Source: Gammaproteobacteria bacterium (GTDB taxonomy: Bacteria; Pseudomonadota; Gammaproteobacteria; Pseudomonadales; Azotimanducaceae). Taken from it: a stretch of 64,000 bases of DNA. Under the pieces are notes generated by a model that was given only the letters and a program-made list of their open reading frames with translations, made no database searches and was not told the DNA's origin. Numbering within the stretch: the stretch's first letter is position 1; every line of letters begins with the position of its first letter. Shown here one piece after another: positions 1,898 to 17,993 of the stretch. The position numbers and the translations under genes were made by a program. Location: positions 1 through 64,000 of the forward strand of contig JAPPHD010000191.1 in assembly GCA_028821125.1 (NCBI GenBank), read 5' to 3'.

Positions 1898-2139
1898 ATC
1901 AACGTCGATGTTGCGTCATTCGATTGCCGGGGCCAAGGAGATTTCTTCCGATTGCTAAGATCAGCCCGCTCAACGGTTAGGACTTTTCCGTCACGCGCCG
2001 ACGGAACGCTTACGGAAGCTCATGAAGGCCCCGGTTTTGTTTTTCAGTCAGCCTCGATACACAATTGTGATAACAAAGATGATAGCCAATATGAAGATTT
2101 GGGATAAATCGTTCTAAAACAATAAGTTATATAAAATAA

Positions 2140-2153
2140 TGGCGGAGAGGGTG
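2140..2153. repeat. Direct repeat of tRNA-Ser 3' end (putative distal att site)
   Basis: TGGCGGAGAGGGTG, identical to 28230-28243 inside the tRNA-Ser 3' end; lies ~157 bp upstream of the integrase. Confidence 0.65.
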
Positions 2154-2309
2154 TCCGTCACCTTAAACTTTCAACTGCAACCCTGGGTGTTCTCAAAGTT
2201 ACATTAACATATTGATAAATAAAAGTTTATTGGTGCCATAAGCTATCTTGACCAATCACCAGTCCTCAGGCAAACTGAAGCCTTATCGGGTACGAATTGG
2301 GGTACGATT

Positions 2310-3458
2310 TTGGCAAAACTCACGGTACGTAGGATCGAGTCGGCGAAGGGGCCGGCGAAGTTGATGGACGAGCATGGATTATACCTCCGGGTTTCGCCAC
2401 GCGGCGCGAAGTCTTGGATCCAGAGGCTAAATATTCAAGGGCTGAGAACCGACAATTCTCTCGGCCACTATCCGTCGATGAGTTTGGCGGAGGCGCGCGC
2501 GGTAGCGTTCGAACGATGGAAGATTGCTAAAGCCGGAGGCGACCCGCGCCGGGAGGACGGCAAGACGGCGCTTGCGCCGACGTTCGCGGAGGCTGCCGAG
2601 GCGGTTATCACGATGCACCAACCGAACTGGCGCAGCCCCAAGTCCGGTCCGCAGTGGCGGGCTAGCTTAGAGACCTATGCCTACCCGAAGATCGGCAAGC
2701 TGCCCGTGTCGGAGATCACGCCAGCAAACGTCATGGCGGTGCTGCAACCCATCTGGAACGAGAAGCGGGAGACGGCGAGGCGAGTGAAGCAGCGCATCTC
2801 GGCGATCTGCCGGTGGGCTGTGGCACAGGGCCATAGGACGGACGACCCAGCAGGGATCATCATCGACGCGGCGCTACCGCGCAACGGCGTCGAGCGGCGG
2901 CATATGCCGGCACTTCCTTACGACAAGGTGGCGGAGTGCATAGAAAAGGTGAAGGCCAGCAGACGGGCAAGCGCGTCTTCGAAGCTTGCCTTGGAATTCC
3001 TGGTGCTGACGGCGGCGCGATCGTCGGAGGTGCGCAAAGCAACCTGGGAGGAAATCGACGTCGAGGGGGCGACATGGACTGTGCCCGCGGAGCGTATGAA
3101 AGCGAACCGTCAACACCGGGTACCGCTGTCTAAGCGAGCGCTAGAGATCCTGGCCGAAGCCACCGAATTGTCGGACGGCACCGATCTGGTCTTCCCTGGG
3201 ATGCGGCCTGGTCGTCCGCTAAGCGAGAACACCCACGCGAAAACGCTCCGGGAGTTGGGGTTCGATGCGGTGACGCACGGCTTCCGGTCGAGTTTCCGGG
3301 ATTATGCTGCGGAGCGCACGCACACCCCGCACGCCGTCATGGAGGCAGCGCTGGCGCACACGATCAAGAACAAGGCCGAGGCCGCGTACGCTCGTAGCGA
3401 TCTGTTTGAGAAGCGGCGTGCATTGATGGAGTCTTGGGCAGATTATCTCGCGGACTAG
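2310..3458 (+). CDS. P4-type tyrosine recombinase/integrase (N-terminal Arm DNA-binding domain)
   Basis: N-term LTVRRIESAKGPAKLMDEHGLYLRVSPRGAKSWIQRL; C-term HGFRSSFRDYAAERT...AALAHTIKNKAEAAYARSD; TTG start. Confidence 0.93.
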   Translation: MAKLTVRRIESAKGPAKLMDEHGLYLRVSPRGAKSWIQRLNIQGLRTDNSLGHYPSMSLAEARAVAFERWKIAKAGGDPRREDGKTALAPTFAEAAEAVITMHQPNWRSPKSGPQWRASLETYAYPKIGKLPVSEITPANVMAVLQPIWNEKRETARRVKQRISAICRWAVAQGHRTDDPAGIIIDAALPRNGVERRHMPALPYDKVAECIEKVKASRRASASSKLALEFLVLTAARSSEVRKATWEEIDVEGATWTVPAERMKANRQHRVPLSKRALEILAEATELSDGTDLVFPGMRPGRPLSENTHAKTLRELGFDAVTHGFRSSFRDYAAERTHTPHAVMEAALAHTIKNKAEAAYARSDLFEKRRALMESWADYLAD

Positions 3459-3481
3459 TCGGAGTTCGACCTGGATCCAAG

Positions 3482-6400
3482 TCAAGGCTCCTTGTCTCTA
3501 CGCCGCCGGAGAACTTGGTTCGCATGGTATCGGAATGGAGCGTGTGAGTCGCTGGACAAGACGTGGCCTAGACATAGGGCGTCGTCGGGATCGGAAAGTA
3601 GATGGGCATCGCCGGCGTGCAGCATGGCGAGAAGCAGGCTCCACTGACGACCTCGAGCAGCGGAGGGGAACGCGTCGAGAAGATCGACGACGCGCGCCTC
3701 TCGATCATGGGCTTCCAACGCGTCGCTCGCAGCTTTGCGCACTTCGGGAACACCGTCGGTGCTGGCGGAGTTCACCAGAGCTGCGTGAACGGTCGGATGG
3801 GGAATCCACGCGGCAAGTTGGGCTGCTTTGAGCCGTTCAGGCGCGAGCCCGGCGAAGCAGCCAACAAGTTCCGTGGAGACGCGTTCGGGTTCGAGTTTTC
3901 GCAATTCCCTGCCGATGGCGTTCCTCACGCGCTCCTGCTCGGTGGCAGCAGCCATCTGCATCAGTAGGTGAACAGCTTCTGAAGGGGCGATGCGGACGAG
4001 CAGGCGGCAGAGTCGCGAAGTCGAACGGGGAAAGGATTGAAGGAACGGGTTGCAGGCGGCGATGGCGCCTCCCATGTCGAACTTCGCGAGCCCTTCGATC
4101 GCGAGTAGTCGGCGGTTGGGCGAGATGGACTCGACCTCGAAAGCTGCCCGGCGGACGTTCTCACGGATTTTGGAGTCGGGAAACTCGGCGGCGATGTCGA
4201 ACGGAGCATCGTAGAACGGCTGGGTGCGAGCGCAGCGGTCTGCCGCCACATGGACGGCGCGCAACTTGGTGCGGGGATCGGAGTAAAGGGCGCTGATCGC
4301 CTCGTTCTCGGTAGCTCCATCGGGTGGGGAACTGCCTGGATCGGTCAGCCAATCGGCGATGAAATGTCGCCCTTGTTCGCCGATTCGCACCAGCGAACGG
4401 AGAGCCACCGACGAATTGGAGGAAGACCGAAGCAATCGGTCGGCCAGACCCGCAAACGAGTCGGAGTTATCCCCCAGGGAGTCGAGTGCGATGCAGGCGA
4501 AACGCGCGGCAAGGCTGTCCGCATCCGCATTTCGCAGAACGGATAACACTGTCGACACGAATTCCCTGTCGTTGCTGAGGTTCGCGACGATCAGCGCGAC
4601 AAGCAGTTCGTCGTTCCGCGAGTCGGCGGCGCCAAGTATCTGGCGTGCATGGGCCGTGAGTTGCCTCGGAATCCTGGTGCTTCCCGGGCGGAGCTGTGGT
4701 AGGTCGAGCGGGATGCCGTTCGGGCCAATGAACTCGATGGCTTCAACCATGGCTGCATCAGCACCCTGCACGGTCAGCAGTCGAACGGCCTGCATTCGCT
4801 CGAGCCGATCTTCGGAGGATTCGTCGGCAACATTCCCGGGGCGCGTGGCTAGGCCGAAGAGGCGATCGCGAATACCTCGGTCGCCGGGATGGAGAGCCGC
4901 CCAGTTGAGACCGCTGTGGCGTATCCAGTAGTACTCGGAGTCCAGTTCGCGGCTGAGCAGCGTGACGGCGCCCTCGCCTCCGATGAACTTTAGAACCACA
5001 TGCGCGCTGTCGCGCATGGTGTCGCGGGTCCGACTGTTCGAATCGAGTCTGCCGCAGGCGAGCTTCACGATCAGACGCTCTAGTTCTCCCCCCGCTTCGT
5101 GTTCGAATAAAGGGAGTAACTGCGGATTGGAGACGCGCGAAAGGAAATCGAGGATACGGCCGGCCCACGCGACTTCGCCAGCAGGGCGTTCGTCAAGTCG
5201 CGTGCGCAACCGACCTTTCAGATCCCGGAGTATCGCGAGAAGCAATGGCTCATCGATCTCATGGGGACGTTCCCAGAAGAGGTCAACGATTGAATTGCTG
5301 TCACCAAACGCCTCGGCAAGGTCAAGAATCCGCCGACGGGTCAGCTTCGCGTCGGCACGCAGCAGGACGGGAAGCCACTGGTTGCGTGAAACGTAGCGGT
5401 CGACATCGGCGACGTCCGCAAGGTGGTCAAGAGCGGCATCGGGATCGAGAATGGCGAGGGCGGTCAGGCTTGACCCGGCGGCGAAGTCCTGGGGGCGCGA
5501 GAGGTTGCCGATCACGAAATCGAGCTGGTCGCGGTCGCGGAAACGGGCGATGCATTGGATCAGGCAGCGCGGCTTTTCGCGCGGTACTGTCTCCATGAGC
5601 ACATCACCGACGTCACGCCAGATGGCTGGTGCGTTGGCGTAGTCCATCGCGCAGAGCAGATAGGCCAACTCGGAAGGGAACTGTGGGTCCGTCGCTGAGG
5701 CGCGGATACGTTGCGACAGCCATGCGGGATCGAGGACCACGGCGGCACGCATGGCCGAGAACGAGGTCTCGTAGTCCCCATACCGATTGGGGTAGGCGTT
5801 GTCGTTAAGCGATGCGGTTCGGTGGCGGTGAAGACCCCAGACAAGATCGAGCAGATTGGGCATGGGTGCGGCGGCAAGAGCCACCAACGCGACATTCTGT
5901 TTGTCTCGGACGCTGGATCTCAGCAGGGATTCGAGTTGGGTATCGAGTTCCACGGCGGCCTGCCTAGCGAGTGCCGCAAAGCCCTGGGCGATGTGGCCGA
6001 CCCTAATGTCGTCTGTCGCATCCGCCACAATTTCGTCAAGTCGCTGGCGGAGGATCGGTATAGCCCGTTGTCCGAGCGTTGGAAGAAGCTCGCCATAGAT
6101 GGCCTCGCCATAGTTCCGTGCATGTTGTTCGAGTCGAACCACAATCGGCGAGAGGTCCTTGGCGCGTAGTGGGTCGGCGGTAAGTTGCCAGAGAACGTCC
6201 ATGGGGACGTAGCCCAGATAACTGTCGAAGAGAGTGCGGTCACCATCTTCGCCCACGAGGATGTCGGCCAGTTGGTCACTGGAGACCTCGCCCGACTCGA
6301 AGCGCTGTGCGAGCGACTTGGCCGTGGCCCAGTTGAGCAGGCGGTCGTGGGTGAAGCCAATCTCGCCGGTTGCACCCGTCGTCACCCAGCCGGAAGCGAC

Positions 6401-8014
6401 AAGGCGCTCTAGGGTGGGCTCTGACACACCGGCGTCGATTGACTTGGACCGCGGCAACGGGTGGGCTCGTGCCTGGCAGATCTTGTCGGCAAGGGCCAGG
6501 ATCGAGCCGTAATCAGTGGGCTGGGCGTTGATTGCAATGCGCTCCCAGAAGGCATCGAAGATTTGATACTCCGTGTGGGGCGCGTCGATAACCGCGGAAG
6601 GCCGGAGGCGCAGGAAGATGCCCGCGAGGATCGGGTTGCGCAACAGCACCCGAAGGTCTCCGGCCAAGTCGCCGGTGCTGTACCCTTCGCGACGTAGCAG
6701 TTCGTCGAGTTGGTTCGGGGTGAAGTTTCCCAAGTAGAGGACATCCACTGCCTCCGCGTCGGTCAGCAGAAGCGACCGAGCGATTTCGTCGTTAACCGCC
6801 ATCGCCAGGCGCATGTCGAGATGGGCCCAGTCTTGGCGGACGAGCTGCCGCGCCACGTCGATGTCGGAAACATCGTCAACGGCTATGGTGAATACAGGTT
6901 GGGGCGCCTCGTGATCGATCTTCCGAAGGGTGTTCGACAGCGCGACAAGAGACATGTCGGTGGTCTCGCCGAGCCCGTGCTGCCAATAGTCGCGGGCGGC
7001 CTGGAAGAGAACATCTTGGGCTGTGGAAGCAGACTGTATCAATGTGGCCGCCAGGCGCCGTCGCGATGCGCCGGTCAAGACGCTGGCGAGTTGCCAGGTT
7101 TTGCCCGAACCGCTCGCGCCCGAGACGAGAAGCACGCGCTTGGACTCGGGCCATGAAGGTTGCGGGCGGACGTCAAGACGCGAAACGTAACGGTCTGAAA
7201 GACGGCCCTGAACGAGCGAATGCATGGTCTCCGCGATTCGCGTTAGTTTGCGAAGACGATTCGGGCTCAGCTTGGCCTCGACAAGTAGCGTATCGATTGC
7301 CTCCGCGTCAAGGTGTAGTTCGCCTATTGCGAGTCTCTCGAGAAGCAGGCCGACAAGCTGGTGTCGGACGTCGGCGGCCAAAAGTCCGGGGGGCGCGATG
7401 CTGCTCAGGAGTCGATCCAGGGATGCAGCGGTTGCGTCAGCGGTGATTTCGAAAACCATGTCGAAGTGGGCGAGGAGGTGGAATGTGGCCGTAAGGTGAT
7501 CCAGTGCTGCAGCCGACTGTTCGTCTTTCGGTGCTCGGGGCCGTGTCGCTACGTCGATGTGGTCGAGGAATTCGCGGTGGGTGACGGCGAGGCCCCTACG
7601 GAAGACACGCGTCGTGTGGCTGTCCAGATCGTCCGGTGTGCGGGCGGTTCTTACCGCTCGCAGGAATGCCTTGAAAGTGTCGAGCCTTCCCTGTTTGCCG
7701 TCTGTGACGAAGCGGTAGGAGGCGTTCTGGGGGAGGGACGGCGGTACGGATCTGCGCAGGTTGCGAAGGGCTGGCAATAGGTCAGCGAGCGACCAGGTTC
7801 GGGCTTGGCGGGTCTTGTATTGTTCGACTAGGTACGTCTCGCGTGTTTCGCCAACGGCGTCGCCGCCGCCCGGTGGCTCGAGGACGAGTGTGGCATTTGT
7901 GAGGCGATGGCCGTTCAGCGCACCGGCGAGCCGCGCTTGGGCTAGCCAGTCTATGTGGTGGAGTATTTGATAGAGGAATCCGTTTATGGCGGCGGGTCCG
8001 CCCGGTTGAGTCAC
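3482..8014 (-). CDS. Large multidomain protein: Cap4-like dsDNA endonuclease domain + STAND-type P-loop NTPase + HEAT-like repeats (Avs-like candidate)
   Basis: N-term GGPAAINGFLYQIL...LVLEPPGGGDA...YLVEQYKTR (E-D-ExK pattern); Walker A GASGSGKT; Walker B-like VFTIAVDDVSD; ~900 aa alpha-helical repetitive C-terminus. GTG start at 8014 preceded by GGAGAG. Confidence 0.75.
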   Translation of the reverse strand: MTQPGGPAAINGFLYQILHHIDWLAQARLAGALNGHRLTNATLVLEPPGGGDAVGETRETYLVEQYKTRQARTWSLADLLPALRNLRRSVPPSLPQNASYRFVTDGKQGRLDTFKAFLRAVRTARTPDDLDSHTTRVFRRGLAVTHREFLDHIDVATRPRAPKDEQSAAALDHLTATFHLLAHFDMVFEITADATAASLDRLLSSIAPPGLLAADVRHQLVGLLLERLAIGELHLDAEAIDTLLVEAKLSPNRLRKLTRIAETMHSLVQGRLSDRYVSRLDVRPQPSWPESKRVLLVSGASGSGKTWQLASVLTGASRRRLAATLIQSASTAQDVLFQAARDYWQHGLGETTDMSLVALSNTLRKIDHEAPQPVFTIAVDDVSDIDVARQLVRQDWAHLDMRLAMAVNDEIARSLLLTDAEAVDVLYLGNFTPNQLDELLRREGYSTGDLAGDLRVLLRNPILAGIFLRLRPSAVIDAPHTEYQIFDAFWERIAINAQPTDYGSILALADKICQARAHPLPRSKSIDAGVSEPTLERLVASGWVTTGATGEIGFTHDRLLNWATAKSLAQRFESGEVSSDQLADILVGEDGDRTLFDSYLGYVPMDVLWQLTADPLRAKDLSPIVVRLEQHARNYGEAIYGELLPTLGQRAIPILRQRLDEIVADATDDIRVGHIAQGFAALARQAAVELDTQLESLLRSSVRDKQNVALVALAAAPMPNLLDLVWGLHRHRTASLNDNAYPNRYGDYETSFSAMRAAVVLDPAWLSQRIRASATDPQFPSELAYLLCAMDYANAPAIWRDVGDVLMETVPREKPRCLIQCIARFRDRDQLDFVIGNLSRPQDFAAGSSLTALAILDPDAALDHLADVADVDRYVSRNQWLPVLLRADAKLTRRRILDLAEAFGDSNSIVDLFWERPHEIDEPLLLAILRDLKGRLRTRLDERPAGEVAWAGRILDFLSRVSNPQLLPLFEHEAGGELERLIVKLACGRLDSNSRTRDTMRDSAHVVLKFIGGEGAVTLLSRELDSEYYWIRHSGLNWAALHPGDRGIRDRLFGLATRPGNVADESSEDRLERMQAVRLLTVQGADAAMVEAIEFIGPNGIPLDLPQLRPGSTRIPRQLTAHARQILGAADSRNDELLVALIVANLSNDREFVSTVLSVLRNADADSLAARFACIALDSLGDNSDSFAGLADRLLRSSSNSSVALRSLVRIGEQGRHFIADWLTDPGSSPPDGATENEAISALYSDPRTKLRAVHVAADRCARTQPFYDAPFDIAAEFPDSKIRENVRRAAFEVESISPNRRLLAIEGLAKFDMGGAIAACNPFLQSFPRSTSRLCRLLVRIAPSEAVHLLMQMAAATEQERVRNAIGRELRKLEPERVSTELVGCFAGLAPERLKAAQLAAWIPHPTVHAALVNSASTDGVPEVRKAASDALEAHDREARVVDLLDAFPSAARGRQWSLLLAMLHAGDAHLLSDPDDALCLGHVLSSDSHAPFRYHANQVLRRRRDKEP

Positions 8015-8296
8015 GTTGACTCTCCTTGCTGAACGTACAGAGACGAGATAATCCACGGTCGAGGCGCAGCGTCACCCAAGACTGGATTGGTCATTGCCGA
8101 TCGGGTGTGGATTGCCAGCGGGCCGAGGCGATAGAGTGACAAGATAGCAAATGCTGCGAGCGGTGAAGGCTACGGTTTGCTTTTTCCACACGGCTCAACT
8201 TGACTACGCGGTCGTGATTCGCGGGCGAATTCGGTGTTCCAGCGTGACAGATTATTTCGATTTGTCAGCACAAGTGCAGGAGGGCAGGCAAGGGTT

Positions 8297-11215
8297 TTAG
8301 AGATCTTGTGTCGTCTGTGGTGGAGCGGTGCTCTTGCCGCCGTGGACCGAAGGTTCGCTGCACCACTGCTGACGGAGATTGTCCAGGGGACTAAGCACGT
8401 CGCATGGTAGATCGAGTAAGTCTATTAGAACCGCCCGGTCCAGGGCTTGGCGCGTGGCGTCGCGATAGGCTTCGTTTGCAGGCAACAGTGGCGTTCCCTG
8501 GAATTGTTGGAATAGTTCCTGAGCCTGCTGCAACTTGGCAGCAGACAGGCCGCGCGGATCTATAGTGGCCAAGCCCGGGAGGCCGCTAATTGTGAGTACA
8601 CTGCGGCCCTGCTGTTGGCGAGATCCGGACCACCAGAAACACATCAACCCGAGGGTGGAATTGGCCCAAAGAGCGAGAACCTCCTGCCATGCGGTGAGTG
8701 TTGGGCTAAAGTTGGGCCAAGCTCGACCTCCCAAGGTGACTTCAGGCGTCAGACATGCGGCAAGACTCTGAGAGTTGAGACGGAAGTCCCTAGTGAAGTG
8801 CAACCTGGTCGCGGTCTGCCAAGTTTCAATCGCGTGATCGTCGCAATCGGGACGAACGTCGCCCTCGGCGTCCGGTTGTACAAGGAGGAACCGTTCACGA
8901 CCGGCATCATGGCTCCAAAGTATGGGATAGCTGGCCGGACCTTGTAGGGGGCGAACAAGAAAGGGCCCGCGAAATGGCGGTTGGCCGACATTCTTGTTGC
9001 CTATATCTCGATCCACCAAGCCACGTTGTCCCACTTCACCCAGGGTGGTAATCGGAACGGCAGGACGAGGGCCATACCTGGGAAGCCTCAGTTCACCGTC
9101 GTTCAGGGCGATCATTGTTTTGGCCAGCACTGGCGCGCGTAATGCCGCGCATCCGCCTTCGGCGAGTGGAGCACGGATGTAGCTGCCAAGATGCTGATGA
9201 CCTGCTTGGATGTAGCCTTCGGTCGACGCGTTCGGCAATTTCGTCACAAGTTTCGCCGTTTCAGCCGCCTCAAGCAGATTGGACGGGCGCTGCAGCAGGT
9301 TTACGAATAGAGCGTCTGGTTCCAGCGGTGAATCGTGTAAACGTTTGGTCGCGATGATCAACGCCTCTGCCATGCCGGTATCGGCTGAAAACGCACGGTC
9401 ACGATTACCCGACGTGGCAATCGTCACTACGGTTAGATTCGTATAGTGGAGGTTCAGTAGATCCCTTGCTGGCTTCCAGGAAGTACCCTGTATGGCGGCA
9501 ATGGGCAGCACGAATGCGATGGTGCCGCCGGGCTTCACTTTCACATGAGCCAGATCCACGAAGTTGGAAGCGAGACCGGCATTGCCGTGGCCGGCTGGGA
9601 GGTCGATGGTTCTTCGTATACGTGCCAATCGGTCGGACATGGCGCGCTGTTCTTGGTCGCTAGTCCGAAATCCGGCGAAAGATGGCACAGGCACGTCTGC
9701 AACTTCGTGGTTGGTCGGTCGTGTGAACGGAGGATTCATGATGATGAGGTCGACAGACTCCTTGGGGAGGTTGATGTCACTGACCTCGACATCTCCTTGG
9801 GCGCCAGTCGCCTGGCGTTGTCCGGTCGTGAACAACGACAGCGTCTCGTCCGCATCGATCAGGTCCAGGGAGCCGATGGCGATATCGCGGTAACGCTCGT
9901 CCCCTGTTCCGGTCCCATAGGGCATTGTGTAGACACGGGTGTTGTCGAACGCGACTGTTGGGTGGACGCTGGACAACTGCGACGCGCAAAGGTGCGCCGC
10001 TGCAGGCATGATGTCGGCGGCTACGACGGCGCGTTCGATCATCGCTCGATGAACGTGCCTGTCATCACCGCCTGCATGGCGATATCGGGTGAGGACGGAG
10101 TGATACGCGGCGGAAAGCAGCGTGCCCGTACCGCATGACAGGTCGGCTATTTGAAGGTCGGGATAATGTTCCAGATCGCTCCAATTGGTCGACATCCGGT
10201 CGACGGCTATTTCGGCCAGTAACGCCGCGCTGGTGGGCAACGTATAGAAGGTAGCGAGGAACTTTCGGTCGATGATCAGATTCTGGAACATCCTGCCAGA
10301 GAGGTCGTGTCGAGTGGTCACGCCGATTGCTGCGAGTCGGTCGGCTGCGGCAACAAGCGCGTCGAGGATTTGTCGTGCAGTCGGGCCGCGAATCGGCGCC
10401 AGCAGGTCGGATGCGACCTTGAAGATCGGCCAGTAGTTAATCTCGTCGAGGATGCGTTGCCACGTGTCCAACAGTGAGAGCTGCATCGAGGCCGACCTGT
10501 CCGCGCGGAGCTGGGCGACCGAAGGAATGTGGTGTGTGCCGGCAATCGTCGAGTGGAACGTCAGCGCATTGGCGACAATCGTCATGGCCATACGGTTGGT
10601 CTGCTCGCCTGCGCGCTGATTGAGTACGGATCCCAAACCGCGTTCTACGTCCGTGAAGCCGCTCTCGACGGCATCGTGTATGGCCCTAGTTGCGATGCGA
10701 ACACCTTGTTCGAGGACCAACATGCTCTCGTCTACAAGTCGTTGCGAGACCATTGCGAATTCGATGCAGCGGACGATGTCGTCGATTCCGCCAGTTAGCC
10801 AACCCGTGGCTGGCATCCTTGTGAGTGCTGTCGGATTGCCGGAGAGAACGCAATAGTCGAAGTCGGCCGCGGCAATGCGTGCGGCCAGGTTCGCCTGATC
10901 CTGCCGCAACGAAACCGGTATGCGAACGGCAATGGTCTGTTCAATAGGATCGGGCGAGTTGAGTGGAGTTAGACCTAGCCGTGTTGCTGCGTCGTGCTCG
11001 ACGGTTGTCGCCGGCGCGTACTCGGTCTCGACAACTACGGGCTGGGCGTTCGGGGGCTGAATCAGGATGTCGGGCCTTAGGCGAGGTTGGGCGGGAAAGA
11101 CACCGGTCTGTTCTACATGGAGGTGTCTACGCCAGAGCGGGTGTTTTCGCCGCAGCACCTCTGCGAACTGCGCGTTTAGTGCGACCTCGCTAGTGCGCGG
11201 CATGCTCGGTAACAC
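8297..11215 (-). CDS. N6-adenine DNA methyltransferase with nuclease-like N-terminal domain
   Basis: Motif I IADLSCGTGTLLSAAY, motif IV DLIIMNPPFTRP; N-terminus RPDILIQPPNAQPVVVETEYAPA resembles a PD-(D/E)XK core. Confidence 0.8.
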   Translation of the reverse strand: MLPSMPRTSEVALNAQFAEVLRRKHPLWRRHLHVEQTGVFPAQPRLRPDILIQPPNAQPVVVETEYAPATTVEHDAATRLGLTPLNSPDPIEQTIAVRIPVSLRQDQANLAARIAAADFDYCVLSGNPTALTRMPATGWLTGGIDDIVRCIEFAMVSQRLVDESMLVLEQGVRIATRAIHDAVESGFTDVERGLGSVLNQRAGEQTNRMAMTIVANALTFHSTIAGTHHIPSVAQLRADRSASMQLSLLDTWQRILDEINYWPIFKVASDLLAPIRGPTARQILDALVAAADRLAAIGVTTRHDLSGRMFQNLIIDRKFLATFYTLPTSAALLAEIAVDRMSTNWSDLEHYPDLQIADLSCGTGTLLSAAYHSVLTRYRHAGGDDRHVHRAMIERAVVAADIMPAAAHLCASQLSSVHPTVAFDNTRVYTMPYGTGTGDERYRDIAIGSLDLIDADETLSLFTTGQRQATGAQGDVEVSDINLPKESVDLIIMNPPFTRPTNHEVADVPVPSFAGFRTSDQEQRAMSDRLARIRRTIDLPAGHGNAGLASNFVDLAHVKVKPGGTIAFVLPIAAIQGTSWKPARDLLNLHYTNLTVVTIATSGNRDRAFSADTGMAEALIIATKRLHDSPLEPDALFVNLLQRPSNLLEAAETAKLVTKLPNASTEGYIQAGHQHLGSYIRAPLAEGGCAALRAPVLAKTMIALNDGELRLPRYGPRPAVPITTLGEVGQRGLVDRDIGNKNVGQPPFRGPFLVRPLQGPASYPILWSHDAGRERFLLVQPDAEGDVRPDCDDHAIETWQTATRLHFTRDFRLNSQSLAACLTPEVTLGGRAWPNFSPTLTAWQEVLALWANSTLGLMCFWWSGSRQQQGRSVLTISGLPGLATIDPRGLSAAKLQQAQELFQQFQGTPLLPANEAYRDATRQALDRAVLIDLLDLPCDVLSPLDNLRQQWCSEPSVHGGKSTAPPQTTQDL

Positions 11216-11744
11216 GCAGGATTGGGAGGTGTACCAGCATGGTTACCTGACTGGCGGCGTAGGTGGTTGTCGTGAGCATAAACGACCTGAACTTTGGCTC
11301 CTGGGACCGCGCAGGCATAGCAAGTGGAGGCTTCGGTTGCGCGACTGCCCCCCGAAACGCTCTCTGCCTGGTTAGTCCTTGAAATACGGCGAAATCAGAG
11401 TCAACGGCATTCCGACATTGCAATTGTACACTGGCAAGGTGATGTGTTGGGCTTATCGCGCTACGTTTGAGAAACGTCACGTTTGGAGGCTACACGGGTG
11501 ATTGAGGCGTGCATACCGTGATCTTTGTTGGTCGAAATGTGCGGAACGTGGCCGAAAGACGGGAGTTAGGCGCACATCCATTGCTCCTGGGCAGGTGGCG
11601 AGGCCCTGAATTCGGCGACACCGCGGCGGAGGTGCGGAGACCCTGTCCGGGTTTCATCGACCACCTTCGGCAGCCGTTGCCCCGGCTATCCGGACGACCG
11701 GAGTCGACCTGCGCCGGTCAGGCGCCGGCGGGTCGGCAAGTTGG

Positions 11745-12150
11745 GTAGATGACCTTGACGCCGAGGACGAGGTTTGGGCGGTTCCGGCGTCGCGCATGAA
11801 GGCGGGGCGGGAGCATTTGGTGCCGCTCGGCAGTCGTGCAGCGGAGGTCCTGGCCGAGGCCGAGAAACTGCGGGAGAACGATCTGGTGTTCCCGTCTGCG
11901 ACGGTGCTTCGTATGAGCGACAACACGCTGTCAAAGCTGCTTAGCGATCTGGGCGTCGACGCGGTTTTGCACGGGTTCCGCTACAGCTTCCGCGACAGGT
12001 GCGGCGAGCGCGGGCAATCGCGTGAACTCTCCGAGGCGGCACTGACACTACGATCCGGAACAAGGCCGAGGCAGTCTATGCGAGGACGGATCTTGTGAAG
12101 CGGGGGGGACTGATGGAAGCCTGGAGTTCCTGTCTGGCCCTACGGTCGCG
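11745..12150 (+). pseudogene. C-terminal remnant of a second tyrosine integrase
   Basis: ORF 11796..12098 MKAGREHLVPLGSRAAEVL...HGFRYSFRDRCGERGQSRELSEAAL, then frame change into TIRNKAEAVYARTDLVKRGGLMEAWSS, matching the 2310 integrase C-terminus. Confidence 0.8.
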
Positions 12151-12233
12151 AACTGCAAGTAGCGCTACTGTCGGGCTGGTGTGTCGACAGCGGCCGTGTA
12201 GTGTGGCCATTGCTGTTTGGCGGTGCGTGAGAC

Positions 12234-13640
12234 CTAATCGGTGTCGGTATCTAGGGTCGCGTCGGGATGGGCGGCGACGCCAAGGAAGATGTCCGACCAT
12301 TTGGGAACGGGGCCGTGGTGGAGGAAGAGGAAGAGCGCTCGTCGGCAGAGGGCCTGGGCTTCAGAAAGCAACTGCAGGTTGTCGTTTGTGCGGTCGACGC
12401 TTCCGGTGTGGACCGCGCTGGAAGCAAGGTCGTAGGACTTCTGCATGATTTTCCAGATGCGGTCCCGGTCGGGACCGTCTCGGCCTAGAAGCCAAGCGGC
12501 TGAGATAGGGATCCGAAACCTGTATTCCTGCTGTGGGCGGTAGTCGAGAAACAGGGCTTCTAGCGCGATGCGCAGATCGATAAAGCGGGCGGCGAGACCG
12601 GCGTCTTGAGCTTGGGAACTGCACCATCGAGAAAGGCCGGTACGGAACCGCGGGTTGGCATTTGAGACTTGGGGCATTGCCACACCGACTTCGGTTTCGT
12701 CAAGGTTGCTCACTTGGTCACCGTCCGGGCGGAGGGTGGTGACGGAACGTTTGGTCTCGTAGGACGCGGAGGGTAGCGGTAGATTGTGTGCGGTACCGAG
12801 CACGGCTGTAGTGCCGGCGAGCGAGCCAAGGTCGCCGTAGTCGTCCCATTGCGGTCCGAACACCACTAGCGTGCCAGCCAGTAGCGAAAGTGCGTGGGGG
12901 ATTGCGGATAGGTCACAGCCGCAAACCAGTCGAGAGGTCAGGTCATTGGCGAGAGTCTGTCCGGGACGAAAAATCGCGGGCTGAACTGTAGCTTCGGCGA
13001 CGAGTAGCGTCTGTCCGAGGAATCTGGTCTCGGTATCCGGACGCGTGGGGAGGAAAGACGGGAGTTCGTCGGTCGCGAGAGGCAGCGGTGATAACTCTAC
13101 TCCGGGCATGGGTGACAGCTTCTGGTCGATGGTCAGTGACAAGACGGCATTGATTCGGTAGCAAAAGGGCTCGCCTGTTGCCCAACCCGCAAGAAGCTGG
13201 GCGGCACGGTCAGGGCCGAGCACTACGGCGCATCGGAATGTCCAGTCGAGAAAGTGGTCGAAAGACGACACGTTCACATGTTTGATGAACCGGTCTTCTG
13301 TTCCGGTGGTTACGCTGTCGACGTCGTGAGGTATGGGGATTGCGGTGGCGATGCGATCGGACACGACGTGCGGCTCGACAATGTTGCGGAGAGCATCCGC
13401 AAGCTCCGACCTAGCGGTAGGCCCGAGCATAATGCGAGCGCCGCGGGCGCGTCGGGATTCTTCCGGGGAGGCGCGGAGCATGGCGGCGAGGGCGTCGGAC
13501 CCGACTACCTCCCCCGGCCGAGCGGCGAAAGTGGTCGTAGTGTCGTGACCGTCTTGGTGTTCGGTGCGGCCGATGTCGAAGGTGGCGTCGGCGAGGGATC
13601 GAAGGAAGGCGTTTTCGAGGGGTTGTGCTGATGGAGTCAT
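12234..13640 (-). CDS. HEPN-like (ApeA/ApeH-type) domain protein
   Basis: C-terminal pattern RFIDLRIALEALFL...FRIPISAAWLLG...KIMQKSYDLASSAVHTGS typical of HEPN helices. Confidence 0.6.
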   Translation of the reverse strand: MTPSAQPLENAFLRSLADATFDIGRTEHQDGHDTTTTFAARPGEVVGSDALAAMLRASPEESRRARGARIMLGPTARSELADALRNIVEPHVVSDRIATAIPIPHDVDSVTTGTEDRFIKHVNVSSFDHFLDWTFRCAVVLGPDRAAQLLAGWATGEPFCYRINAVLSLTIDQKLSPMPGVELSPLPLATDELPSFLPTRPDTETRFLGQTLLVAEATVQPAIFRPGQTLANDLTSRLVCGCDLSAIPHALSLLAGTLVVFGPQWDDYGDLGSLAGTTAVLGTAHNLPLPSASYETKRSVTTLRPDGDQVSNLDETEVGVAMPQVSNANPRFRTGLSRWCSSQAQDAGLAARFIDLRIALEALFLDYRPQQEYRFRIPISAAWLLGRDGPDRDRIWKIMQKSYDLASSAVHTGSVDRTNDNLQLLSEAQALCRRALFLFLHHGPVPKWSDIFLGVAAHPDATLDTDTD

Positions 13641-14099
13641 GTCGTGTGATTTCCCGATTAACGCTAACCCGACTTCCGCAACTCAGCGCCAAAACGGGCG
13701 TAACTCGTTGATTTATGGTTCACAGGGGCAAAAGGTCGGCACTCTTATGGCCCACCCTTCGTCAAGTAGTCTGGAGGTTGTGATCAAGGCATCGATCAAT
13801 TTCCTTGCATTGTCCGATGAGAACATGGTGAATGAACGAACAGAACGTCGTGTCTTTCCAGCACGCCCAGGACGCGCTCAACTCTTATCCGGTTCGGGTT
13901 TCCGGCATCCAGCCGGTCCCGTGACCCCAATGCCACATTCAGGTGGTCCTGACGTTCCGGGAGGTGGGACCCATCTACAAGAACGGTGCCGATCGGCGAA
14001 CCCAGTGCCGACACGGTCTCACACCTTGTCCGATCTTCTCTTCGGCCGCTGTCGGCCGGCGTGGCCTGTTAACTTTGCCGAGGTTGCCGCCACGCTCTC

Positions 14100-15293
14100 T
14101 CAGCGCAGGATCGCGCCCGCAGGCACCCGCTCCAGGGTCGCATATCGCCAGAGCACGATCAGCAGCTTGCGCGCCAAGGCGACGGTAAGCCGCTTGCGCA
14201 GGCGTCGGTTGGCAAGCCGGTCGACGCCGAGGCGGTTTCGATACCACTGCGAGAGTTCGCTGTTGGGCTGATACTGCAACCAGCGCCAGGCCATCTGGAT
14301 CAAATGCTTGCGCACATGGGCCGGCCCGGCCTTGCTGATCCCCTGGTCATGATCGACACAACCGCTGCTCCAGGGGACCGAGGTCAAGCCCGACCATCCG
14401 CCCAACTCACGGCGGTTGCGGAAGTCCCGGCAAAACACCTCCGTGGCCAGCAGCACCGCATCGTTGTTGCCGATGCCCCGCAGGCGTACCAGCCGCGCCA
14501 TCATCGCCTGTACACCCGTGCCGTTCCGGCCAGCCTTTACCAACCGTGTCTTCTCCGCGTCCAGGACGGCGATCTGCGTTTTCACCAGGCTCAATCGCTC
14601 GACGGCGCGCTCAATTTCCGCACGCGCACGCGCCGGCAACGCGGTACCGTACCCGGTCCGCACCGCGGCGAGTTCCTCCAGAAACGTCGCCGCCGTCGGT
14701 GACAAGTCGAAAATGCCGTGCAGCCTGAGCAGCGCACCGATGCGGTTGCCGAGCCGGATCCGTTCGCAGATCAACGTTTCCCGCTCGCGCAACAGACGCC
14801 GCTCGTCCTCCTGCTCGACACTCGGTATGCGCACCCAGGACATCGCCTCCGAATCGCCCAAATCCCACGCCTTGAGCGCACGCACCATCTTGCGGACGTC
14901 GATCCGGTCGGTCTTCGCCTTCTTCGAGCGGCGATTGACCTGCAGGCTCGCCGGATCGTTGATGTAGACGGCAATCCCCGGATCGCGGCGCGCCAGGTCA
15001 CGCGCCAGCCAAAACCCTTCGTAGCCGGCTTCGTAGGTCAACACCACCCGCGGCTCGACCCCCTCAGCCCGGGAAACACGCGCGCGGGCGCGTTCCATCA
15101 ACTGCACCAAGGCGGCCGTGTCCGACGGCTTGACCGTATGCACAGCGACTGTGCCTCCGGTCTCCGGACAGTGCAGCGCGACCACCCAGGAAGACCGACT
15201 GACTTCCACCGCGACGTAAATCGTGCTATCTCTGACCGCCGTCGACACGGCCGTGTTTGAATCACTCATGTTAGGCACTCCGTTGTTGGCCAT
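14100..15293 (-). CDS. IS110-family transposase (DEDD / Tnp20)
   Basis: IYVAVEVSRSSWVVAL..., VLTYEAGYEGFWLARDL, KTDRIDVRKMVRAL, RLRGIGNNDAVLLATE, LGGWSGLTSVPWSSG...GISKAGPAHVRKHLIQMAW. Start at MANNGVPN (15293) or MSDSN (15269). Confidence 0.93.
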   Translation of the reverse strand: MANNGVPNMSDSNTAVSTAVRDSTIYVAVEVSRSSWVVALHCPETGGTVAVHTVKPSDTAALVQLMERARARVSRAEGVEPRVVLTYEAGYEGFWLARDLARRDPGIAVYINDPASLQVNRRSKKAKTDRIDVRKMVRALKAWDLGDSEAMSWVRIPSVEQEDERRLLRERETLICERIRLGNRIGALLRLHGIFDLSPTAATFLEELAAVRTGYGTALPARARAEIERAVERLSLVKTQIAVLDAEKTRLVKAGRNGTGVQAMMARLVRLRGIGNNDAVLLATEVFCRDFRNRRELGGWSGLTSVPWSSGCVDHDQGISKAGPAHVRKHLIQMAWRWLQYQPNSELSQWYRNRLGVDRLANRRLRKRLTVALARKLLIVLWRYATLERVPAGAILR

Positions 15294-15423
15294 GACCCTT
15301 CGGAGAGCAGGCCGGTGGCTTCGGTCTGCTCTCCGCATCACCCCGAGCTAATCGCAATTCACGTTCCCGGGCAACGCCATAGCATCTACAAGGTGCCGCT
15401 GGGGAAAGGCGTCAGGGATCCGT
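15270..15423 (-). ncRNA. Candidate IS110 noncoding end / bridge RNA region
   Basis: Noncoding stretch 5' of the IS110 transposase with a strong hairpin CGGAGAGCAG...CTGCTCTCCG. Confidence 0.3.
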
Positions 15424-17175
15424 CTAGGTCGAGATTCTCGGTAACGGCTGCTCCGACAAACGCAGTTTGAGTTGATCCAGCAACAGTTGGTGATCCGCGG
15501 TGGGCTGCGTGTAGCGTGGCAACGTCAGGTGCCGCCCATCGGTGGTCGGCAGGTGCACATCGACCATCTGAATCGTCGCGAACTTTTCCAGGATGGCCCG
15601 CGGCGTGAGTCCCGGGGCACAGGGTTTTGCCAGGTTTTTCAGCGTCACCTGCAAACAGTAGGCAATGAACGCCACGAAGATGTGCGCCTCTATCCGGTCC
15701 TCGCGTTGATGGAAGACCGGCCGAATGGCCAGATCGTGCTTGAGTTCCTTGAACGCCTGCTCAATTTCGGACAATCGCATGTAGTAACGCCACAGGGTGG
15801 CCGGATCCTCGCCGGTCAGGTTCGAGCGCAACAAGTAACGGCCTTCCCGGCGACGGGCTTGGCGCAGCCGGTCCCGGCGCAGGGTGAAGGTGAAGGTCTG
15901 TGGGGAAACCGCTTCCCCGACCTTGGGCAGGCGAATGTCCACCAGACGATAGGTGCGGCCCGCTTCGGTCTTCGCGGCGCCGATCTTCAACAGCAGCGCA
16001 TCCCGGCTCAAGCGTTGTCCCTGCAACTCGTGCAACCGCCGCCACAGTTTCTTCAGTTTGCGCCGGCGCATGCCGCGTTCCTTCAACACCCGCGCCCGGC
16101 TCTGCGCCAGGATGTAGAGTTCGCCGTCCTGGGCCACCAGCTTCACGTCGACGGCATCGCGCACCGCCCGCCAGGGCTGTCCGACAAACGCCTTCTCCAT
16201 CCGGCTCAGACGTCCCTTCGGGGTGCCGACCAGGTAGTGCACGGGCGGCTCGCTGGCGCGCATCGCCGTCAGCGTCGCTTCGGTGGGAATGCCCCGATCC
16301 ATGATCCAGACCCGATCCGAGTGCCCGTACTGTGCCTCGATCTTGTGCAGAAAATCGGCCAGCGTCGTGTTGTCGCTGGTGTTGCCGGGCATCACCTCGT
16401 AGGCCAACGGAAACCCCTGCGGCGTCACGATCAGGGCGATCACCACCTGGACGCAGTCGCTGCGCCGGTCCCGGCTGTAGCCGAACCGCCGTTTGTCCGA
16501 AAACACCGGGTCGCTCTCAAAATAAGTGGAGGTCAGGTCATACAACAAAACGTCGAAACGGGCGTCGAAGAGCGTCGTCCAGCGTTCCTTGAGAAACGAG
16601 AAAAAGGCTTGCTTATGAATGAGAAGCTTGTCCAGGCACCGATACAGCGTGTCGTCGGCAATGACCCCCATCGGACTGTCCAGCAGATCGCGCATGGCGC
16701 TGTGTTCGTACCAGTGCCGGTGCAGCCGCCACTCGCTGCCCGGGTCGATCAGCTGGTAGCACACCTGCGTCTTCAGCACATCCAGCCAGCGCGTGCCCTG
16801 CCGGCTTGCCGGCAACCGCGGTCCCCAGAACCGATCCAGGTCCAATCGGTCCCACAGCGACAGCGACAGCCAGCACGCGCCCCATTGTCGCGGCCGATGC
16901 AGGCTCAACGCACGCACGTCGATCTGCACGACTTCGCAGTCCAACTCCGGCGCTTCCCGGTCGTCGGCAAACAACGCCATCGGCGCCGGCCCGGAATCCC
17001 CCTTGAGCACCTCGATCGAGCGGCACCAGGCGGCGCGCTGGCTGTCGTTGATCTCGCCCAGATAGAGAAGCTGGCGCTGCACCACGCGGCCGTCGCGGTT
17101 GCGGCAGTTCTCCACCACGCTCCAGTAGCGGTGCTCCTTGCCGTCCTTGAATCGTCGCTTGGCGCGCACAAACAT
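15424..17175 (-). CDS. IS1634-family transposase
   Basis: MFVRAKRRFKDGKEHRYWSVVENCRNRDGRVVQRQLLYLGEIN...; DRGIPTEATL; EQAFKELKHDLAIRPVFHQREDRIEAHIFVAFIAYCL. Confidence 0.92.
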   Translation of the reverse strand: MFVRAKRRFKDGKEHRYWSVVENCRNRDGRVVQRQLLYLGEINDSQRAAWCRSIEVLKGDSGPAPMALFADDREAPELDCEVVQIDVRALSLHRPRQWGACWLSLSLWDRLDLDRFWGPRLPASRQGTRWLDVLKTQVCYQLIDPGSEWRLHRHWYEHSAMRDLLDSPMGVIADDTLYRCLDKLLIHKQAFFSFLKERWTTLFDARFDVLLYDLTSTYFESDPVFSDKRRFGYSRDRRSDCVQVVIALIVTPQGFPLAYEVMPGNTSDNTTLADFLHKIEAQYGHSDRVWIMDRGIPTEATLTAMRASEPPVHYLVGTPKGRLSRMEKAFVGQPWRAVRDAVDVKLVAQDGELYILAQSRARVLKERGMRRRKLKKLWRRLHELQGQRLSRDALLLKIGAAKTEAGRTYRLVDIRLPKVGEAVSPQTFTFTLRRDRLRQARRREGRYLLRSNLTGEDPATLWRYYMRLSEIEQAFKELKHDLAIRPVFHQREDRIEAHIFVAFIAYCLQVTLKNLAKPCAPGLTPRAILEKFATIQMVDVHLPTTDGRHLTLPRYTQPTADHQLLLDQLKLRLSEQPLPRIST

Positions 17176-17792
17176 GGACGGATAGCGTGCCCCAACGGGC
17201 CGTCAAATCAAGGGGCAAGGTCTGCACTACAGGCGGTTCGCCGTGGCTCAGACCAAGAAAATCAACACCTTAGATGACCCGCGACCGCCCAAATCGGGCA
17301 AAATTAGTTGAAATCAGGGTCGAGTTGCGGAAGTCGGGCTAAAGTAACCGGGGATTCTGTGTAGGTAGGCGTGGAGCGGCAAGGGTAAGGGGGCAACGGG
17401 GCGCCTGTCACTAGCCAGAAAGCGCGTTTGAGCGAATCGAAGAAGGGGCTCGCGGAAGGTTAGAGTGAGGCGGCGTCGTGGGTGCGGTCAGGGGCGACGG
17501 GGAAACGGGGCGTCGAAAACACTTCAGCGGGGACGCGCCGTTGGGGCGTCGTCTGCCTCGACCGACGCCCGTGGGAACTCGCGATTGGTTCGACCGGCGC
17601 TGTCCGGTATTGTCCGCAGCGGCGAACGGACAACGGCGAGAGCGAGTGGGAAACGAGGAACAGCGACGCTACGTCAGACTGGATCCGATGGACATCGGGA
17701 TGGAAGTCGATCTCGCAGTCGCGGCTGTGCGTTTTTTTTGGGACACACATCATTGAGATCACAGGGCTATATCGACAAGATCAGAATCGAGG

Positions 17793-17833: not shown

Positions 17834-17918
17834 TCGAGACCCCGCTTCCCGGCCCTTCGGGCGGATTCTGGGGGCTTCGCAGAGTTTTTGTGTTTAGCAC
17901 GCTGTAATTGCTATTCGG

Positions 17919-17993
17919 CGCGCCCGGGGAAATTCGAACTCCCATTTTCCAGCTTCTGAATGCCGGTGCCTTGTCCGATTAGACTACGGGCGC
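17919..17993 (-). tRNA. tRNA-like gene with 8-nt anticodon loop (identity uncertain)
   Basis: Reverse complement folds as cloverleaf: GCGCCCG/CGGGCGC acceptor, GTCT/AGGC D-stem, CCGGC(ATTCAGAA)GCTGG, GGGAG(TTCGAAT)TTCCC; 3' end GCCG rather than CCA. Confidence 0.6.

What the first reader, a model, noticed from the sequence alone, without database searches (positions are those of the whole stretch)
3482..11215. Candidate two-gene defence system: nuclease-like N6-methyltransferase followed by Cap4-like/STAND/HEAT giant protein
Two same-strand large genes ~280 bp apart. The downstream ~1510-aa protein has an E-D-ExK Cap4-like N-terminus, GASGSGKT P-loop and a long helical-repeat C-terminus, the layout of Avs-type STAND antiviral sensors. 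The upstream 972-aa protein has SAM-MTase motifs (LSCGTG, NPPF) and an RPDI...VETEY nuclease-like N-terminus. I do not know a described system pairing these; a modification enzyme beside a STAND nuclease would suggest self/non-self discrimination by methylation coupled to abortive cleavage. The link is inference.
Basis: partly seen in the sequence, partly recalled or inferred. Interest (0 to 1): 0.8.

Follow-up and report, generated by a model that had tools for sequence, protein, structure and literature searches.

The report
Two unlinked anti-phage genes side by side
Two large genes that look like independent anti-virus defences, a restriction enzyme that also marks DNA and a nuclease-armed alarm protein, lie next to each other in a mobile-DNA hot spot, but their relatives elsewhere were never found as neighbours, so they are very unlikely to be one new two-gene system.

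Summary
Both genes are real and the domain reading is largely right, but the "two-gene system" is not supported. The upstream gene (972 aa) is a gamma-class N6-adenine methyltransferase with an N-terminal PD-(D/E)XK-like domain and a C-terminal specificity domain; its predicted structure (pLDDT 90) matches the Type IIG restriction-modification enzyme BpuSI best, and relatives show sharp swaps of the specificity domain. The downstream gene (about 1510 aa, start at 8014) is a Cap4-like nuclease + STAND NTPase + HEAT protein, built like Avs sensors but outside every PADLOC Avs model. None of 80 loci with a relative of the methyltransferase carries the STAND gene (58 have at least 5 kb downstream). 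Of 50 genomes with the methyltransferase one has the STAND gene, 0.9 Mb away. Five STAND relatives have no methyltransferase beside them. In the window the pair sits between an intact integrase and a decayed one, so adjacency is best explained as accretion of two solo defence genes in an integration hot spot. Side result: the methyltransferase family spans 11 phyla, up to 12 matches per genome, mostly in apparent sponge-symbiont bins.

The parts
8297..11215 (-). 972-aa solo Type IIG-like restriction-modification enzyme candidate: N-terminal PD-(D/E)XE-like domain (aa 5-150), helical connector (151-340), gamma-class N6A methyltransferase (341-625), specificity domain (626-960)
10835..11188 (-). 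coding stretch of the PD-(D/E)XK-like core, about aa 10-127, with D49, E63, E65
   Evidence: motif conservation; alpha-beta-beta-beta-alpha-beta order; weak fold hits to PD-(D/E)XK nucleases
3482..8014 (-). 1510-aa Cap4-like nuclease + STAND NTPase + HEAT-repeat protein (Avs-like layout); the frame itself opens at 8056
8015..8296 (.). 282-nt intergenic gap between the two genes; no promoter- or terminator-like site was scored in it
2310..3458 (+). intact tyrosine integrase (Arm-DNA-bind_3, Phage_int_M, Phage_integrase), convergent with the STAND gene
11715..12139 (+). [quoted passage not shown]

Best explanation
Two independent, single-gene defence modules that came to lie side by side as cargo of integrase-bearing elements. 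Module 1 (8297-11215) is a single-chain Type IIG-like restriction-modification enzyme: its C-terminal domain recognises a DNA sequence, the gamma-class domain methylates an adenine in it on self DNA, and the N-terminal D49/E63/E65 domain cuts unmodified incoming DNA. Module 2 (3482-8014) is an Avs-like STAND sensor: the HEAT-repeat C-terminus binds a trigger (probably a phage protein), the NTPase oligomerises, and the N-terminal Cap4-like nuclease (D66, Q79-x-K81) degrades DNA and stops the infection. Shown here: domain anatomy, conservation, lack of linkage, specificity-domain exchange in relatives. Inferred: cutting, methylation target, trigger and defence phenotype.
For: Independence: no STAND relative in any of 80 methyltransferase loci by tblastn or by a profile of six STAND relatives with positive controls found (58 loci have at least 5 kb downstream, so linkage above about 5% is excluded at 95%); 1 of 50 methyltransferase genomes has a STAND relative, 0.9 Mb from the methyltransferase, against 2 of 398 clear full-length relatives in a background sample (Fisher p = 0.30). 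Five STAND relatives have other neighbours. The methyltransferase has no recurrent close neighbour except copies of itself. Island: intact and decayed integrases on either side. Type IIG: model pLDDT 89.9, pTM 0.92; best PDB fold match BpuSI, E 2e-16, then PglX, with DrdV also high; archaeal-virus relatives annotated 'type IIG restriction modification enzyme'; specificity-domain swaps, e.g. tandem copies in L072 identical over about 1800 nt then about 40-75%. STAND: Cap4-type residues in 6 of 6, LmuA (Lamassu nuclease) profile match in 3 of 6 N-termini, best 1.2e-5; D-x12-QxK is the arrangement found in AbpA (D45/Q58/K60), where Q58 and K60 were mutated to test defence (PMC10732053).
Against: No activity of either protein is shown. 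In the methyltransferase the usual Lys is Glu; BamHI also has Glu there (PMC4081073), but a dead nuclease is possible, and the N-terminal model alone had no PDB fold match at E <= 0.001. The window STAND protein itself matches no PADLOC profile. Only six STAND proteins were found, so a rare linked lineage could be missed; no genome of a close relative of this organism was available.
Confidence: 0.75

Rival explanations
1. A true two-gene system: the methyltransferase marks host DNA and the STAND nuclease attacks unmarked DNA or is licensed by the mark.
For: Same strand, 282 nt apart, inside one integrase-flanked segment.
Against: No linkage in 80 methyltransferase loci or five STAND loci; the methyltransferase carries its own nuclease-like domain; the STAND protein carries its own sensor-like repeats.
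Confidence: 0.04
2. The methyltransferase is a modification-only enzyme (orphan or anti-restriction methyltransferase of mobile elements, or an epigenetic regulator), with a structural rather than catalytic N-terminal domain.
For: Lys replaced by Glu in nearly all members; some distant relatives lie on plasmids beside transfer genes; strong fold similarity to solo methyltransferases such as CamA and to BREX PglX.
Against: D49, E63 and E65 are each kept in at least 79 of 82 members from 11 phyla, on the expected strands; up to 12 matches per genome and specificity-domain exchange fit restriction-modification better.
Confidence: 0.25
3. The STAND/HEAT protein has another cellular role (for example DNA repair or regulation) rather than phage defence.
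For: Window protein matches no known defence profile; HEAT rather than TPR C-terminus.
Against: Cap4/LmuA-like N-terminus, P-loop region similar to Avs2 in relatives, sporadic distribution beside integrase or recombinase genes.
Confidence: 0.12

Closest known systems
Type IIG restriction-modification enzymes (RM.BpuSI, Eco57I, MmeI/DrdV)
   Same: Single chain of nuclease-like, gamma-methyltransferase and specificity parts in that order; about 970 aa (Eco57I 997 aa, PMC3874165); best PDB fold match; multi-copy and specificity-swapping
   Different: Only 10-13% identity; D...ExE in place of D...ExK; no characterised member found; no companion methyltransferase gene
BREX PglX/BrxX
   Same: Fold of methyltransferase and specificity parts; weak sequence match
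   Different: Stands alone with no recurrent partner genes
MADS MAD2
   Same: Best PADLOC match of the methyltransferase, E 1.1e-7
   Different: NCBIfam score 16 against a cut-off of 720; partial coverage
Avs (AVAST) sensors, nearest Avs2
   Same: Nuclease + STAND NTPase + helical repeats in one chain of about 1500 aa
   Different: Window protein has no hit to PADLOC Avs profiles; relatives match only around the P-loop; HEAT rather than TPR repeats
Cap4 / LmuA / AbpA nuclease domains
   Same: D-x12-QxK motif and an LmuA profile match in relatives
   Different: Fused to STAND and HEAT instead of SAVED, or with partners in separate chains

Membership tests
Type IIG restriction-modification enzyme | One chain with N-terminal cleavage domain, gamma-class methyltransferase and specificity domain | tested here: met
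   Order of domains in a model of pLDDT 89.9; BpuSI best match, E 2e-16; cleavage activity of the first part itself is the next row
Type IIG restriction-modification enzyme | N-terminal PD-(D/E)XK nuclease | tested here: inconclusive
   D49/E63/E65 kept in 79-80 of 82, expected strand order, best weak hits mostly PD-(D/E)XK nucleases including DrdV, but none at E <= 0.001; Lys is Glu as in BamHI
Type IIG restriction-modification enzyme | Exchangeable target-recognition domain | tested here: met
   Tandem copies in L072 with 100% identity up to about nt 1800 then a sharp drop; the same trend in L051/L059; seen in relatives, not in the window copy
Type IIG restriction-modification enzyme | SAM-dependent methylation and cleavage at a fixed distance | not testable with these tools
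   needs biochemistry
Avs (AVAST) STAND sensor | Tripartite effector-NTPase-repeat chain | tested here: met
   layout as described in PMC12931631
Avs (AVAST) STAND sensor | Sequence match to a named Avs family | tested here: not met
   0 PADLOC hits for the window protein; relatives only P-loop hits at 4e-4 to 4e-3
Avs (AVAST) STAND sensor | Activation by a phage protein | not testable with these tools
   needs phage experiments
MADS (MAD2) | MAD2 equivalog score | tested here: not met
   16.1 bits against cut-off 720
A two-gene methyltransferase-STAND defence system | Conserved adjacency across genomes | tested here: not met
   0 of 80 loci; 1 of 50 genomes, 0.9 Mb apart
BREX (PglX) | Accompanying BREX core genes | not tested
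   no dedicated search for pglZ, brxC and others; no recurrent close neighbours of any kind were seen in relatives

The most novel reading that the evidence does not exclude
In this one lineage the two genes have been recruited into cooperation, the methyltransferase protecting the cell's own DNA from the neighbouring Cap4-like STAND nuclease.
Probability: 0.04. Interest if true: 0.75.

Novelty: new member of a known kind. Interest (0 to 1): 0.33.

Why it matters
It removes a tempting but false new defence system and replaces it with two testable solo modules: an unnamed Cap4-STAND-HEAT family outside current Avs models, and a large, apparently unnamed Type IIG-like family that is rare in a sample of ordinary Pseudomonadota but present, often in many copies and with swapped specificity domains, across 11 phyla of apparently mostly sponge-associated bacteria, where restriction-modification genes are reported as enriched and laterally transferred (PMC8163846).

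Tried and rejected
Two-gene system: rejected on co-occurrence. MADS and BREX membership: MAD2 score far below cut-off; PglX similarity only in methyltransferase sequence and overall fold. Sequence search of PDB with the STAND N-terminus and with the methyltransferase gave nothing strong. Viral-contig scans for the STAND protein found none, phage records none; four viral-contig relatives of the methyltransferase. No clean att-like direct repeat around the pair was found: the only long direct repeat is the homologous integrase ends. The comparison of STAND frequency (1 of 50 against 2 of 398) is not significant.

Full report
WHAT IS THERE. Two minus-strand genes: a 972-aa methyltransferase gene at 8297-11215 and a STAND/HEAT gene at 3482-8056 by the longest frame. 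Relatives of the second protein begin at M[TS]QxGGPAAING, and in the window AAGGAG precedes GTG 8014; the gene is therefore most likely 3482-8014, 1510 aa, 282 nt from the methyltransferase. A terminator/promoter consensus scan of 2000-12300 finds fewer sites than shuffled DNA and none in the gap, so an operon is neither shown nor excluded.

METHYLTRANSFERASE. Pfam gives only weak methyltransferase matches and PADLOC a weak MAD2 match; NCBIfam's MAD2 equivalog scores 16 against a cut-off of 720. A genome scan found 523 relatives; the best 80 loci were kept. In an alignment of 82 full proteins CGTG and NPPF are invariant, and D49, E63 and E65 are present in 79, 80 and 79. AlphaFold2 on this alignment gave pLDDT 89.9 and pTM 0.92. 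Foldseek against PDB gave 84 matches at E <= 0.001, best the Type IIG enzyme BpuSI (E 2e-16), then BREX PglX, Type ISP LlaBIII, DrdV, CamA. The N-terminal 186 residues folded alone (pLDDT 93.8) show a helix-strand-strand-strand-helix-strand order, with D49 just before a strand and ExE in the next. No PDB match of this part reaches E 0.001, but the list of best weak hits is rich in PD-(D/E)XK nucleases (by my knowledge of these names: R2 endonuclease, Cas4-like SSO0001, DrdV, AdnA/AdnB, Exo5, McrC, Card1/Can2). Glu in place of the motif Lys is known in BamHI (PMC4081073). Type IIG enzymes are described as gamma-methyltransferases with N-terminal cleavage domains, Eco57I being 997 aa (PMC3874165). 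Relatives on haloarchaeal viruses are annotated as type IIG enzymes.

SPECIFICITY EXCHANGE. Among tandem copies in locus L072, two genes are 100% identical in DNA for about 1800 nt (except the first block), through the nuclease-like, helical and methyltransferase parts, and then drop to about 40-75% in the specificity part. Two copies in the Synechococcus spongiarum SH4 genome show a milder form of the same. This is the behaviour of restriction-modification specificity domains. Caution: L072 is from a metagenome bin, and near-identical repeats can be misassembled.

STAND PROTEIN. HEAT_2 matches all six relatives, AAA_22 is weak in four. The same D-x12-QxK spacing is in AbpA (D45, Q58, K60), where the nuclease domain is required for defence (PMC10732053). 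The N-termini of three of six match the LmuA profile of Lamassu, best 1.2e-5. Walker A, VD[DN] and HDR[LV]LNW motifs are conserved. PADLOC's Avs2 profiles match relatives only around the P-loop, and the window protein not at all. Its layout is that of Avs-type STAND proteins (effector, NTPase, repeat sensor; PMC12931631), but by sequence it belongs to no named Avs family in that library.

ARE THEY A SYSTEM? tblastn with three STAND proteins finds none in 1.42 Mb around 80 methyltransferase relatives; a profile of six STAND proteins also finds none while recovering its controls. 58 of these loci have at least 5 kb downstream, which puts the 95% upper bound for linkage at 5%. In 50 genomes that hold the methyltransferase, one has a STAND relative, at 1.876 Mb against 0.974 Mb for the methyltransferase. 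STAND relatives in Rhizobium and Sphingomonas plasmids and in three genomes have other neighbours; two of those genomes, searched whole (one only 76% complete), lack the methyltransferase altogether. The methyltransferase has no recurrent close neighbours apart from copies of itself and orthologous loci of close relatives; one relative sits beside a cytochrome-oxidase-like gene cluster. So the pairing is private to this locus, as far as could be seen.

WHY ADJACENT. An intact tyrosine integrase (2310-3458) ends 23 nt from the end of the STAND gene, and a frameshifted C-terminal remnant of a different integrase (about 11715-12139, 50-65% identical) lies upstream of the methyltransferase; two transposase genes follow. 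Accretion of cargo at an integration hot spot explains the adjacency (inference).

DISTRIBUTION (side result). The methyltransferase family is found in 11 named phyla, and its tree mixes phyla: the window copy is nearest to an Acidobacteriota and to alpha- and gammaproteobacterial copies. Of 37 genomes searched, many have several matches, two have 12 (some are fragments at contig ends); in a sample of 398 other Pseudomonadota one genome had a distant match. Bin names (RHO, COS, CAR, STY, APA; Ca. Synechococcus spongiarum) point to sponge symbionts; that reading of the bin codes is inference from the sponge species in PMC8163846, which reports restriction-modification genes as enriched in sponge bins and laterally transferred. 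The host of the window's own organism is not known here.

VERDICT. Observation confirmed; joint interpretation not supported. Each gene is a new member of a known kind (Type IIG-like enzyme; Avs-like Cap4-STAND-HEAT sensor). Defence function of either is inference.

Noticed in passing
window 12234-13640 (-): 468-aa protein with no Pfam, PADLOC or NCBIfam hit; its C-terminal part matches phrog_28161 (unknown function, 1.1e-6) and by eye resembles an ApeA/HEPN-type domain; possible further defence cargo.
   Followed up: partly
L072 10007-12901 and 13023-15920: Tandem Type IIG-like genes identical in DNA for about 1800 nt with a sharp break at the specificity domain; the same genome has 12 matches to the family.
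   Followed up: partly
L023-L102: Type IIG-like family concentrated in apparent sponge-symbiont bins of 11 phyla, with near-invariant D...ExE instead of D...ExK.
   Followed up: partly
L011 and L017 (Nitrosospira plasmid pNRS527-2): Distant methyltransferase relative, not listed as a gene in the table, followed across the record start by an ATP-binding protein and an S8 peptidase gene.
   Followed up: no
window 13652-17354: IS110-family transposase (14100-15341) and a DDE transposase (15424-17175) enclosed by 33-nt inverted arms 13652-13684 / 17322-17354, 79% complementary.
   Followed up: no
L113 7732-13291: STAND relative with, next to it, a gene whose C-terminal part looks like a TIR domain by eye, and an integrase; may be a defence island.
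   Followed up: no
window 17917-17993 (-): tRNA-like call with a four-base anticodon (tcag), near the transposases; perhaps a decayed tRNA gene.
   Followed up: no
G000:C43:37056-37307 (L003): Decayed second copy of the methyltransferase C-terminus (50% identity, one stop) elsewhere in the same genome.
   Followed up: no
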